A stretch of 64,000 nucleotides of DNA from Thermomonas beijingensis. GTDB taxonomy: Bacteria; Pseudomonadota; Gammaproteobacteria; Xanthomonadales; Xanthomonadaceae. The DNA is taken from the NCBI RefSeq assembly GCF_020034655.1, contig NZ_JAIQDJ010000001.1, forward strand, positions 186,001 to 250,000, in the 5' to 3' direction. The position numbers and the translations under genes were made by a program. This document shows, piece by piece, positions 13,348 to 20,128 of the stretch. How positions within the stretch are numbered: position 1 is the stretch's first letter; each line of letters opens with the position of its first letter. Below the pieces are notes generated by a model, which saw only the letters and a list, made by a program, of their open reading frames with translations, made no database searches and was not told where the DNA came from.

Positions 13348-13544
13348 ACTGCGTGGCTATTCCCGCTTAGACCGGTGGCGGGTTGCCGCCCGCCGCGCAA
13401 TACGGCAGCTGGCGGTACTGGCGGATCCAGCGATGGATCCAATCATCCAGCGCCTTGCCGGTCAGCCCGCTTTCGCAGATTTTCACGCACCATAGCAGCT
13501 GGGTACCGCTGTAGCCGGAGCTGGCGCAGGTGGTGGTGGGGCCG
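13348..13544. repeat. 197-bp identical 3'-end repeat, copy 1
   Basis: Base-for-base identical to 14249-14445 when compared by eye. It covers the C-terminal tag, stop codon and about 20 bp beyond the stop of tagged gene 1. Identity stops abruptly where the tag meets the N-terminal domain, which belongs to a different family in the two genes. Confidence 0.85.
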
Positions 13545-14122
13545 GTATCAATGCCGAATTCAGCGAAAATGAGTCCGTTTGAACTCGATGTCGTAACAGT
13601 AATCGACGAGATCGATTCGCCAGCGGTGCTATAGAAGGCGACGCCATTGGCGCTGTCAGGTCCGCCTAGTGCATTGGGGCTTACCGAAATGGGGCCGGAA
13701 TTGGTGCCTGAATCACTGGTGGCCGTAAAGGTGGATGTGCCCCAAGCGTTAACCAATGTATAAAAGTAAAACGCATGGGTGTTGGGTGGCAATGTGAGTG
13801 TGCTGGTGCTGGCCGTTGCATATATCGGCCCGCTGTAGCCTTGCCCCCAAGTTGCACCTAAGGCACTGAAAGGGTATTTGGTGGCTTGTGGGTTGATCCC
13901 CAGCACGCCCGCGCCTGGGTTGCCGGGAATAGTGGATATGTTGGAGAAGTCGGGGATTGCATTCTGCGGTGCCAGACTAAACGGCGTCAGCGTGTATCCA
14001 CCGATGCTGGTGGGGGGCGCAGCCGTCCCTAAGTTCTGGAATACCACCGCAGCATTGGCGCTGAAGCTGGCCGCAGCCAGTGCCAAGGCGCTGAGCGCAA
14101 ACGTTATTTTGTGTAGTTTCAT
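13367..14122 (-). CDS. Exported protein with C-terminal Cys tag 1 (beta-rich type)
   Basis: A 251-residue protein I do not recognise. A Sec signal peptide ends near SFSANA. Residues ~25-195 are Gly/Ser/Thr-rich and look like a beta-sandwich; this domain is shared with tagged protein 4 (16409-17191; for example PPNTHAFYFYT against PANTHAFYFYT). Residues 196-251 are the shared tag: four Cys spaced C-x12-C-x3-C-x25-C, the core WCVKICESGLTGKALDDW, an amphipathic WIHRWIRQYRQLPYC, and a tail ending NPPPV. It starts at an ATG with GAGGGA upstream. The N-domain vaguely resembles extracellular domains of PEP-CTERM proteins, but no PEP-CTERM signal follows. Export is well supported; function is unknown. 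Confidence 0.85.
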   Translation of the reverse strand: MKLHKITFALSALALAAASFSANAAVVFQNLGTAAPPTSIGGYTLTPFSLAPQNAIPDFSNISTIPGNPGAGVLGINPQATKYPFSALGATWGQGYSGPIYATASTSTLTLPPNTHAFYFYTLVNAWGTSTFTATSDSGTNSGPISVSPNALGGPDSANGVAFYSTAGESISSITVTTSSSNGLIFAEFGIDTGPTTTCASSGYSGTQLLWCVKICESGLTGKALDDWIHRWIRQYRQLPYCAAGGNPPPV

Positions 14123-14142
14123 GGCATTCCCTCACGGATCCG

Positions 14143-14191
14143 GCACCCCCTGTGGGTACGCTTGGGGTAGCATAGCGCAAACCGAGTCACA
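14143..14191 (-). promoter_or_regulatory. Conserved leader hairpin and upstream motif of tagged gene 1
   Basis: Read on the minus strand, an upstream motif TGTGAC-N7-GCGCTAT (14191-14172) is followed about 21 bases later by GGGGGTGC. The GGGTGC of this block can pair with GTACCC just before it (14159-14154 with 14148-14143). The same arrangement precedes tagged genes 2, 3 and 5. The motif may be a promoter or operator and the hairpin an RNA control element; both roles are inferred from conservation only. Confidence 0.5.
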
Positions 14192-14213
14192 TAATGAAGC
14201 TGTCTATGGGCAT

Positions 14214-14245
14214 ACAACAACGCCGGCTTGCGCCGGCGTTGTTGT
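14214..14245. terminator. Hairpin terminator T2 behind tagged gene 2
   Basis: Perfect 14-bp stem (ACAACAACGCCGGC) around TTGC, which is GCAA on the minus strand. Compared with T1, one base pair is changed on both sides of the stem (A-T to C-G), a compensatory change showing that the fold and not just the sequence is kept. Confidence 0.75.
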
Positions 14246-14248
14246 TGG

Positions 14249-17191: not shown

Positions 17192-17261
17192 GGTGTTCCC
17201 CTTGTGTAGATCAATTGGAAGCGGAGTCAGAGCAGTGGGCGGGCGCGCCACCCCCAAGCAC

Positions 17262-19121
17262 TTAGTTGGTGGACCACGTCAAGGTAACACCTGAATACGC
17301 CGCGTACGCGTTGACTTTGACGTAGTAAGTGGTAGGCGCAGCCGGTTTGAAGGTGCAGACCTCGTTATTGCCGGTCAAATACGGTCGGCAGTTGAACAGG
17401 CTCAGGGTAGGGTCACTACCGGCGCGCACATACAAGTCCGCATCGCCGCTACCGCCACTGATGGTGATGGTGACGCGTTTGTTGGTGGCTACGGCGATGG
17501 CATAGCTGGATGACCAGGCATTCTGGGCGACGTCGGGCAACAGCATGCTGCCATCGGTCAGGCTACCTGCTGCGGGGCAAGCAACATGGGTACCTGCAAA
17601 CGCGGCGGTGACATCGGCCTTGCTAAAGCCCAAATCCTGCGCGGCGGTCTCTACGCCGCATGCCCCCTGATTGAATGTGCTGGATGCGGTCCAGTAATCG
17701 CGGTTGGCGCGGGCAAAGGCTTTGAACGCCTTGACCACACCCCAGCCTGGGGTTTGCGCAAGGTTGCAGAATGCCTTGTTGTACACACCCGAGCTGTAGT
17801 GCACATTCATGCTGGCGGTGTAGTTGTTGGCATTGTCGATCGAGCGCCCATCCAGCGGTGGATTGCACATGTAGCGCAGTGCCCCTGCGGCTTTGAAGAT
17901 TTCCGCACCCACCAGCCAATCATTGCTGCCACGGTCATAGAACTCTGCCGCTTCGCCGGCCATGTCGGAGTAGGCCTCGTTCATGCCACCGGATTGGCCG
18001 AAATACAGCAGGCCGGAATTGTTTTCGGTAAAGCCGTGCGAAATTTCGTGGCTGCTGACATCCAGGCTGACCAAGGGATAGAACGTGCTGGCACCATCGC
18101 CAAAGGTCATCGCGGTGCCGTCCCAGAAGGCGTTTTCGTAGTTGGTGCTGTAATGCACCTTCATCACCATTTGGTAATTGAAGGGCCGCATCATGCCCAG
18201 GTAATCCTTGTACATGTTGAAAATCACGCGCCCGAAATGATGCGCGTCATTCATCGGCGCATAAGCACCATTGACGGAACGGGTGGTGTTGCGTGGGCAG
18301 GTGTAGCTGAATGGTGTGGTACTGGCATTGCTATTGGAGAAGTTCAGGTCCACGGTGCGCACATTGCCGCTGTTCATGGTGCAGGTGCTGCCACTGACTT
18401 TGACATCCAGGAACGGCCGGCCACCGCTGCCGTATTCGTACTGCCCGGTCTTGAGATTGCCGCCTGGGCCGGTACCCACCAAGGTGTGTTGCAGGTTTTC
18501 CCATTGCTGGATTACCGCGCCGGACTGCGCATCCACGATCACCATCGGCCGTGTCGGGTGACCGCCGGCGGCGGAGTCGGCAAAAAAGCTCACCGCATAC
18601 GCCAAATGACCACGCCCCCCGTCATCCATGTACACCACCAAATCCGATGACTCGTTGCGGGTGATGCGGCTGATGGCGCTGCGCCCGATGGTGGCTTGTT
18701 TGGCGGCAATCAGTGCGGCAGCGCGGTTGAGTTTGGGGGTGGTGGAGGTGATGTCGCGCTCCAGACCACTTATCTGGGTGCCAAACATGGTGCGTACATT
18801 GCCCTTGGCATCCTCACTGAGCGCAAGGCCCTGGCCGAAGATCGGGATGCCGCGCCAAGCCTGGTCATAACGATAGTTGTGGACGTCGGGATCTTGCTGG
18901 CTGCGGCGCATCAATAAAGTGGAGTCCGCGCCGAGCGCCAAGAACAGTGCATGCCGGCGATTGGTCATGCTGGGCGTGCCGCGGCTGGTCACGATGGTTT
19001 GATATTGCGCGCGTAGTTGCTGCACGTCACGCTGATGCAGGTCAGTACGGTCGGCGGCGTGCGCCGTGGTGGCAAGCAGAGCCAGACCGCACAATGGCAG
19101 GAGTGAATGAGACGGCTTCAT
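17262..19121 (-). CDS. Secreted M4 family (thermolysin-like) metalloprotease
   Basis: A 619-residue secreted zinc protease precursor. It has a signal peptide ending AHA (~23), an FTP/PepSY-type propeptide (to about residue 215), and a catalytic domain with H358-E359-x-x-H362 (SSHEISHG) and third zinc ligand E382 in GGMNEAYSD. The C-terminal ~90 residues look like a PPC domain ([17 protein letters not shown]). It has no Cys tag. M4 enzymes of this build are classic type II secretion substrates, and the xps genes lie just beyond the next gene. It is likely cotranscribed with tagged gene 4, so processing of tagged proteins is a possible role (inference). Confidence 0.93.
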
Positions 19122-19207
19122 GATGGATCTCCCCAGGTTCGCGACATGCGAATTGTTCAGATGCTGTAACGTGGGGCATGGGAAATGACGGCCAATCGAT
19201 ACTCAAT

Positions 19208-19239
19208 ACAACAAAGCCGGCTTGCGCCGGCTTTGTTGT
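19208..19239. terminator. Hairpin terminator T5 behind tagged gene 5
   Basis: Perfect 14-bp stem identical to T1 (ACAACAAAGCCGGC) with the TTGC/GCAA loop. It separates tagged gene 5 from the M4 protease gene on the same strand. Confidence 0.8.
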
Positions 19240-19261
19240 GTGACTGCGTGGCTATTCCCGC

Positions 19262-20128
19262 TTAGACCGGTGGCGGGTTGCCGCCCGCCGCGCAATACGG
19301 CAGCTGGCGGTACTGGCGGATCCAGCGATGGATCCAGTCATCCAGTGCCTTGCCGGTCAGACCGCTTTCGCAGATCTTGACGCACCACAACAATTGCGTG
19401 CCGGTGTAGCCGGAGCTGGCGCAGGTGGTGACCATGCCGCCAGGGATGGCCCAAGCGATCAGATTGGTGGCGTAGGCTTGCATGCCGGGACTCGCGGCAT
19501 TCCCGGAGCAAGGGCCAGCGGCGAAGTAACAGGTGAGTGGAATTGTGGAGAACACCACTTTGCCGGCACCGGTGTTGTAGGCAAAGGTGGTGACATAGCT
19601 TGCGGTGTCCTGTGTCGCCAGGATTTGCGAGCCAGCGGGCAGAGACCCTGCATCGACATAGCCGTGATTGGATGAGCTGCCATTATCCAGCGAGGCATTG
19701 TTGATCGCGCCACCAGGGCCTGCGGTGATTGGGGAGCCTGACGGGAAATCGATCTGGTATCGATTTCCACCGTTATATGAGTAGGGTACGGTCTGCCCGC
19801 CAGGCAAGGATTTGCTGCCTTGGCCGCCCCAGTTGGGGTCATGCCAGATCAGTACCATGCCGCTGTTTACGGCGCTGTCCACCGCCGCATTGGTTGCGAA
19901 ATAGCAGCCGTTGATGAACAAGCCTTGTAGCCCCGCCAGCGAGGGCGCATCCAGGGATGCGACGGCAACTGGCGTATGGCCAGCCGCGGTGATGATGGAG
20001 GCGGGATTGACGTTGTAGCAATTGTCCCCGTAGTACCCCACATTTCCCGCATGGCTGACGGCCGGCATCGCCATTGCCCCCAACCCCCCCAGTACCGCCA
20101 ACGCCAGTGTTGTCATTTGCGTTTTCAT
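19262..20128 (-). CDS. Exported protein with C-terminal Cys tag 5 (alpha/beta type)
   Basis: A 288-residue exported protein homologous to tagged proteins 2 and 3. It has signal peptide MKTQMTTLALAVLGG, then ITAAGHTPVAV, a Cys after a strand (GLFINGC), NSGMVLIWHD, GPGG, LPAGSQILATQD and GAGKVVFST. The tag is the last 56 residues, ending NPPPV. Its protein sequence is almost that of tags 1 and 2, but the DNA carries several silent differences. The ATG at 20128 is preferred over one three codons upstream: GAGAG lies 9 bases before it. It is divergent from the type II secretion operon across a 177-bp gap. Confidence 0.85.
   Translation of the reverse strand: MKTQMTTLALAVLGGLGAMAMPAVSHAGNVGYYGDNCYNVNPASIITAAGHTPVAVASLDAPSLAGLQGLFINGCYFATNAAVDSAVNSGMVLIWHDPNWGGQGSKSLPGGQTVPYSYNGGNRYQIDFPSGSPITAGPGGAINNASLDNGSSSNHGYVDAGSLPAGSQILATQDTASYVTTFAYNTGAGKVVFSTIPLTCYFAAGPCSGNAASPGMQAYATNLIAWAIPGGMVTTCASSGYTGTQLLWCVKICESGLTGKALDDWIHRWIRQYRQLPYCAAGGNPPPV

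What the first reader, a model, noticed from the sequence alone, without database searches (positions are those of the whole stretch)
13367..20128. Five exported proteins on two unrelated scaffolds share one invariant four-Cys C-terminal tag
The genes at 13367, 14268, 15307, 16409 and 19262 each have a Sec signal and one of two unrelated N-domains (beta-rich in 1 and 4; alpha/beta in 2, 3 and 5). All end in the same ~56-residue module: Cys spacing C-x12-C-x3-C-x25-C, core WCVKICESGLTGKALDDW, amphipathic WIHRWIRQ(Y/F)RQLPYC, then a Pro-rich end (NPPPV, or NPPP...GGEG). Over the first 47 residues only one Ser/Thr and one Tyr/Phe position vary, apart from the residue at the extreme N-terminal edge. 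The DNA of tags 3, 4 and 5 differs silently from tags 1 and 2, so purifying selection is acting. A constant tail on changing heads is what a sorting, anchoring or assembly signal looks like (compare PEP-CTERM or type IX CTDs, which it does not resemble). I know of no described family with it.
Basis: partly seen in the sequence, partly recalled or inferred. Interest (0 to 1): 0.88.

Follow-up and report, generated by a model that had tools for sequence, protein, structure and literature searches.

The report
Shuffled cysteine-hairpin tag on exported proteins
A small cysteine-rich protein module has been copied onto the ends (and twice into the middle) of at least eight otherwise different kinds of exported bacterial protein, often beside a secretion-machine gene cluster, and it looks like an undescribed docking or sorting tag whose sequence tends to match within a genome and differ between genomes.

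Summary
In detail: five minus-strand genes at 13367-20137 end in the same 47-residue four-Cys module on two unrelated heads. It is a real shuffled module, not the end of one ordinary domain family. I found 34 matching frames in 10 of 395 genomes of the family, on eight head architectures (GATase1/ThuA-like, beta-sandwich, NHL propeller, a weakly propeller-like protein, RCC1+Ig, P-domain, ExeM/NucH-like nuclease, one unnamed). Two copies lie inside a head, so it is not strictly C-terminal. No convincing Pfam, NCBIfam or solved-structure match was found.

(1) Heads pair by orthology, tails mostly by genome: concerted evolution with gene-conversion mosaics. (2) At similar silent divergence, T1/T4 tails differ at 1.8% of replacement sites, their heads at 31%. 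(3) In 9 of 10 tail genomes tail genes lie beside purL and/or the type II secretion gene xpsE; purL and xpsE adjoin (about 35-269 bp apart) in 15 of 17 tail-less genomes of the genus.

Best reading: a disulfide-locked helical-hairpin docking tag. Whether the type II system, a surface anchor or other tagged proteins read it is untested. No partner was found; no rhombosortase above cut-off in 25 genus genomes.

The parts
13367..14122 (-). T1: exported beta-sandwich head (family A) + Cys-hairpin tail (core 13394-13534)
14268..15146 (-). T2: exported GATase1/ThuA-like head (family B) + tail (core 14295-14435); tail DNA identical to T1
   Evidence: fold from the T5 model
15307..16245 (-). T3: family B head + tail (core 15352-15492), end ...PPPGGEG
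16409..17191 (-). T4: family A head + tail (core 16454-16594); tail silently most diverged; the listed ORF opens at 17257 (TTG)
17262..19121 (-). M4 (thermolysin-like) metalloprotease with PPC domain, in the same islet, no tail
19262..20137 (-). T5: family B head + tail (core 19289-19429); AlphaFold2 model: tail = two helices
13318..13339 (+). terminator-like palindromic hairpin after T1
14219..14240 (+). same hairpin after T2, two compensating changes
15248..15269 (+). same hairpin after T3, one mismatch
16350..16371 (+). same hairpin after T4
19213..19234 (+). same hairpin after T5
9370..13251 (+). purL (FGAR amidotransferase): left border of the islet
20279..22012 (+). xpsE/gspE (T2SS ATPase): right border, divergent from T5
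22017..30883 (+). further T2SS genes: T2SSF 22017-23231, N-methylated pilin-like 24252-24674, T2SSK 25312-26145, secretin 28679-30883
   Evidence: only these four were scanned

Best explanation
The tail is a small separately folding module: two helices, expected to be held by two disulfides made in the periplasm. It is shuffled between genes for exported proteins and works as a docking tag. Tagged proteins of one cell present much the same tag surface, so different heads are brought to, or held at, one common site outside the inner membrane (outer-membrane surface, matrix, or a site on the type II secretion route). Gene conversion plus selection keep the tags of a genome alike while they drift apart between genomes. 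SHOWN: modularity, presence on different heads, concerted evolution, purifying selection in the window's copies, the purL/xpsE home site. INFERRED: export (signals by eye), disulfides (four invariant Cys), docking, the common partner, delivery by T2SS.
For: 34 frames on eight architectures. The four Cys, Gly7, Leu13, Glu21, Leu29 and Pro44 are invariant in 11 chosen diverse tails. The tail is modelled as two helices in T5 (blocks of pLDDT 81-91, the first block 63) and in T4 (54-57 and then 38, poor). Trees of 16 head-B proteins: genome label needs 12 changes on the head tree (shuffled mean 11.9, as low in 157 of 200) and 8 on the tail tree (minimum 8; 0 of 200 shuffles as low). All 31 near-full tails: 12 changes, minimum 9, shuffled mean 21.5, 0 of 200; labels by head type 10 changes against 10.8 shuffled, as low in 41 of 200. 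Same-genome paralogues: tail pN below head pN in 11 of 11 pairs; for T1/T4 pS is 0.71 (tail) and 0.67 (head), pN 0.018 and 0.311. Distant copies agree: two G225 tails 1.2 Mb apart are 94% identical, their heads 40%. Head B was found in 9 of 395 family genomes; all 18 copies lie in frames that hold the tail. Tail genes lie beside purL and/or xpsE in 9 of 10 tail genomes; purL and xpsE adjoin in 15 of 17 tail-less genomes of the genus.
Against: No partner was identified. Homogeneity is not complete: G352 and G340 tails need 5 and 3 changes, G225 two because of its internal copy, and the two G334 tails differ at pN 0.19. The tail trees rest on 47 columns and many forks are weak. Gene conversion alone could produce much of the likeness. 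Between genomes tails do not always evolve faster than heads: tail pN exceeds head pN in 4 of 7 ortholog-like pairs. Location, disulfides and binding were not measured.
Confidence: 0.45

Rival explanations
1. The tail is a portable cargo signal read by the type II secretion system itself, in step with that species' Xps proteins.
For: Home site beside purL and/or xpsE in genomes of three genera; in the seven genomes where xpsE is on a fetched contig with a tail gene, the tail genes lie on the strand opposite to xpsE. Orthologous T2SS cargo can be species-specific: Pel3 and PelI, 67% identical, are not secreted by each other's Out system (PMC7949064, abstract). G225 and G081 copies far from the site carry the same genome type as those at it.
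Against: xpsE is found in 23 of 25 genus genomes, tail or not. The M4 protease in the same islet lacks the tail, and so do 8 of 10 ExeM/NucH-like nucleases, five of them in tail-bearing genomes; such enzymes are typical T2SS cargo (recalled). In V. cholerae an Ig fold supplied the secretion signal that the C-terminal tag lacked (PMC13393428, abstract and one results section).
Confidence: 0.22
2. The tails bind each other: a self-association hairpin that assembles different heads of one cell into a multi-headed exported complex, so tags must match one another.
For: Would explain matching within and divergence between genomes without a partner, and tolerance of an internal position. Inference only.
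Against: Genomes G334, G340 and G352 hold clearly different tails. Complexes could not be modelled here.
Confidence: 0.15
3. The tail is only a stabilising cap; its likeness within genomes is a passive result of gene conversion in repeated 3' ends.
For: Mosaic tracts: T1/T5 share a run of 11 of 28 polymorphic sites (permutation p 0.003, one of six uncorrected tests); shared 3' flanks and hairpins.
Against: T4 has high silent divergence from the other copies (pS 0.52-0.71) yet at most two replacement differences; conversion would remove silent differences too. ExeM-like relatives do without it. The internal copies lie within a domain.
Confidence: 0.15

Closest known systems
GlyGly-CTERM / rhombosortase
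   Same: One short tag on several unrelated exported heads, a DNase among them; found in species with T2SS (PMC3237569, five passages; PMC13393428, abstract and one section)
   Different: No Gly-rich motif, hydrophobic helix or basic end here; two internal copies; rhombosortase model TIGR03902 over cut-off in 0 of 25 genus genomes
PEP-CTERM / exosortase, MYXO-CTERM, LPXTG
   Same: Many-to-one tag logic (PMC3237569, passage)
   Different: Those are tripartite anchors (PMC3237569 passage; MYXO-CTERM from the abstract start in a search listing, PMC11980579); this is a soluble four-Cys module predicted as a helical hairpin
Type IX secretion CTD
   Same: Folded C-terminal module on varied cargo (recalled)
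   Different: CTDs are beta-sandwich domains of Bacteroidota (recalled); this is predicted helical
Dockerin / carbohydrate-binding modules
   Same: Portable non-catalytic module that can be terminal or internal (recalled)
   Different: No such Pfam match at E<=10 for T1-T5; no known ligand
MZT1 (mitotic-spindle organizing protein 1)
   Same: Weak local match over profile columns 10-35, best E 0.019
   Different: Covers 26 of 47 columns, not the outer Cys; taken as chance

Membership tests
GlyGly-CTERM (rhombosortase target) | C-terminal Gly-rich motif, hydrophobic helix, basic residues | tested here: not met
   Sequences, read by eye, end in the four-Cys module and a short, often Pro-rich, extension or none. 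ExeM-GG model NF033680 scores 50.6 against cut-off 1300 on L071
GlyGly-CTERM (rhombosortase target) | Rhombosortase present in the same genome | tested here: not met
   TIGR03902 over cut-off in 0 of 25 genus genomes; sub-threshold hits also ring in all 14 controls. The two tail genomes outside the genus were not searched
PEP-CTERM/exosortase and kin | Tripartite C-terminal anchor | tested here: not met
   No NCBIfam match for T1-T5 at E<=10; among 10 relatives the only PEP-CTERM-named hit is to the NHL head (ScyF model, 27 bits against 350)
PEP-CTERM/exosortase and kin | Cognate exosortase in genome | not tested
   no search made
Type IX CTD | Cargo of PorU/PorV machinery | not tested
   not searched
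Sorting tag in the wide sense (works like) | One module on many unrelated exported heads | tested here: met
   Eight architectures; export judged by eye
Sorting tag in the wide sense (works like) | Always at the C terminus | tested here: not met
   Internal in L077:8082-9092 and L070:2120-3172
Sorting tag in the wide sense (works like) | Co-distributed processing or receptor partner | tested here: inconclusive
   Head B co-distributes (9 of 395 genomes) but is itself tagged; no genome-wide gene-content comparison was possible
T2SS cargo | Export depends on T2SS | not testable with these tools
   needs mutants
Head B in GATase1/ThuA-like fold | Flavodoxin-like alpha/beta fold | tested here: met
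   Foldseek: 40 chains at E<=0.001, among them 3fij, SpuA 7d50, ThuA-like 1t0b and several glycosidase chains; TMq 0.31-0.47, modest. Catalytic residues not checked

The most novel reading that the evidence does not exclude
The module is a genuine, transplantable type II secretion recognition tag: a compact folded signal, encoded beside the machine, that co-evolves with each species' Xps components. T2SS cargo is otherwise held to be recognised by structural, composite determinants.
Probability: 0.2. Interest if true: 0.9.

Novelty: new variant of a known kind. Interest (0 to 1): 0.7.

Why it matters
How the type II system picks its folded cargo is an open question (PMC7949064, abstract). A 47-residue module that nature has put onto nucleases, propellers and lectin-like domains, often beside the xps genes, is a ready-made test piece.

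Tried and rejected
Rejected: chance similarity; a single ordinary domain family; a phage, plasmid or viral element (phages none; plasmids one spurious 19-residue match at E 0.4; IMG/VR 14 candidate stretches, none confirmed); rhombosortase partner in the genus; MZT1 kinship.

Hits dropped before counting: 5 of 11 genomes (L019-L023, E 0.003-0.008); 5 of 15 (E 0.002-0.007, at most 27 of 47 columns); 7 of 8 (E 3e-4 to 8e-3, at most 36 columns); 1 of 2 (E 8e-4, 33 columns); L012 and L013; L006 and L007. The frames of L006, L007, L012, L013, L019, L020, L022 and L023 were printed and look like chance or antisense; L021 and those were judged by score and span only. One search's column table used 25 of 31 tails (two internal, two ExeM, one propeller and one divergent G352 tail left out); its tree used all 31. 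Tree tests left out the two internal copies.

Led nowhere: five peptide strings of the core in full text (0 papers); a ThuA/T2SS/Lysobacter search (8 of 59 listed), a sorting-tag/Lysobacteraceae search, a concerted-evolution search. That the module is undescribed rests on these searches, and on the family libraries only. Disulfide geometry could not be measured: no model coordinates in the box.
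Full report
CHECK. The five genes and their tails are as described. T1 and T4 share one head family (A), T2, T3 and T5 another (B). The tail core is 47 residues with four Cys. 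For T1-T5 Pfam at E<=10 gives one meaningless ketoacyl-synthase score on T3 and NCBIfam gives nothing. The own genome (2.79 Mb) has these five copies and two weak hits, E 0.19 and 0.29, that I take as chance.

RELATIVES. A profile of 11 tails found true copies in 10 of 395 genomes of the family: 8 in the window's genus (25 genomes drawn) and one each in two other genera. Wider draws found true copies only in the window's genome: 398 genomes of the phylum and 369 of the class, both subsamples. After fetching 19 regions there are 34 matching frames, window included. In three the tail is cut or broken (L082:3-74, L083, L078:5655-6827), and in two more the head is cut off at a contig end (L070:1-174, L074:7922-8161).

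HEADS. By Pfam and NCBIfam: NHL propeller (G081); Big_9 with only weak, sub-cut-off propeller matches (G340); RCC1 + He_PIG (G334); P-domain (G177, G007); Calx-beta + an endonuclease that matches ExeM/NucH NF033681 at E 1e-42 but below its curated cut-off (146.8 of 300 bits; G340, and its 91% relative in G352); and without a match heads A, B and one more (G352, L070:178-1089). The RCC1 protein of G334 and the ExeM-like proteins share a similar Ig-type stretch directly before the tail (49% over 69 residues), so a two-domain cassette may have moved. The ExeM-like nuclease is in 10 of 25 genus genomes; only G340 and G352 carry the tail, the other eight end without it, five of them in tail-bearing genomes. 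Two head-B proteins, in G225 and G352, carry the module inside the head.

HEAD B AND THE TAIL TRAVEL TOGETHER. A head-only profile found head B in 9 of 395 genomes, 18 copies, each in a frame that also holds the tail; the tenth tail genome, G007, is 72% complete. In the genus the same 8 of 25 genomes have both. Head B models as GATase1/ThuA-like; head A as a beta-sandwich with weak matches to CBM-type folds, model pLDDT 70.

CONCERTED EVOLUTION. T2 and its G199 relative have heads 68% identical and tails 37%; T2 and T5 have heads 46% and tails 98%. On trees of 16 head-B proteins the genome label needs 12 changes for heads, no better than shuffled, and 8 for tails, the minimum. Over 31 tails of all head types: 12 changes against 21.5 shuffled; head type gives 10 against 10.8, although the two ExeM tails do pair. 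Exceptions: G352, G340 and G225 are not single groups. Mean tail pN is 0.085 within genomes (51 pairs) and 0.291 between (444 pairs); these pairs are not independent. The codon view shows mosaics: T3, T4 and T5 agree in much of the 5' half against T1/T2, while T4 stands apart in the 3' half. T1/T5 share a run of 11 of 28 polymorphic sites (p 0.003), T3/T4 of 5 (p 0.045); the other four pairs are not significant and nothing was corrected for six tests. The 3' flanks fall into two classes, T1/T2/T5 and T3/T4, both with hairpins. So conversion is likely, but T4, far diverged at silent sites and at most two residues different, shows selection as well. In ortholog-like pairs the tail outpaces the head in 4 of 7, in same-genome paralogues in 0 of 11.

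SITE. In the window the islet lies between purL and xpsE, with T2SS genes beyond. Tail genes lie beside purL and/or xpsE in 9 of 10 tail genomes: both borders on one contig in G000, G225, G081, G199 and G007 (there with one more gene before xpsE); on two contigs in G329 and G177; purL side only in G352 and G334; not seen in fragmentary G340. In G334 the gene on the far side resembles a neighbour of the second site, so xpsE does not follow there. Of 17 tail-less genomes of the genus, 15 have purL and xpsE about 35-269 bp apart; G131 has other neighbours and in G346 the contig ends. A second site, beside sulfate-assimilation genes, holds copies in G225, G352 and G340. xpsE was found in 23 of 25 genomes, so the T2SS does not need the tail.

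MECHANISM. Shown: a portable, selected, concertedly evolving module. Inferred: export, Dsb-made disulfides, docking, one common partner. I prefer a docking tag over a T2SS signal because untagged T2SS-type enzymes lie beside it, and because in V. cholerae secretion signal and surface tag are separate parts (PMC13393428: abstract; one results section). The genome-typed tail still fits T2SS recognition, which can be species-specific (PMC7949064: abstract and start of introduction).

PAPERS. PMC3237569 was seen as five passages; PMC11980579 and all others only in search listings.

Noticed in passing
window 17262-19121: M4 thermolysin-like protease with PPC domain sits among the tail genes but lacks the tail.
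   Followed up: partly
L077:8082-9092 and L070:2120-3172: Tail module inside head B; by eye the middle of the G352 copy matches that genome's C-terminal tails while its end matches the G225 internal copy, as if converted in part (sequences).
   Followed up: partly
L078:5655-6827: Family A gene of G081 whose tail stops after 23 residues (frame broken).
   Followed up: no
L084:2677-3789: 371-residue protein between the tail gene and xpsE in G007; no Pfam match at E<=1e-5.
   Followed up: partly
L071:2751-6434, L068:2794-6474, L086:3-1334: Similar Ig-type stretch + tail on a nuclease and on an RCC1 protein.
   Followed up: partly
window 13318, 14219, 15248, 16350, 19213: One near-identical palindromic hairpin after each tail gene, absent elsewhere in the window at up to 3 mismatches; several other genomes also show alike hairpins after their tail genes.
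   Followed up: partly
L075 (G334): purL, a tail gene and a gene that elsewhere neighbours the second site lie side by side; a rearrangement or an assembly fault.
   Followed up: no
tail profile columns 10-35: Weak profile match to MZT1 chains, E 0.019; probably chance.
   Followed up: no
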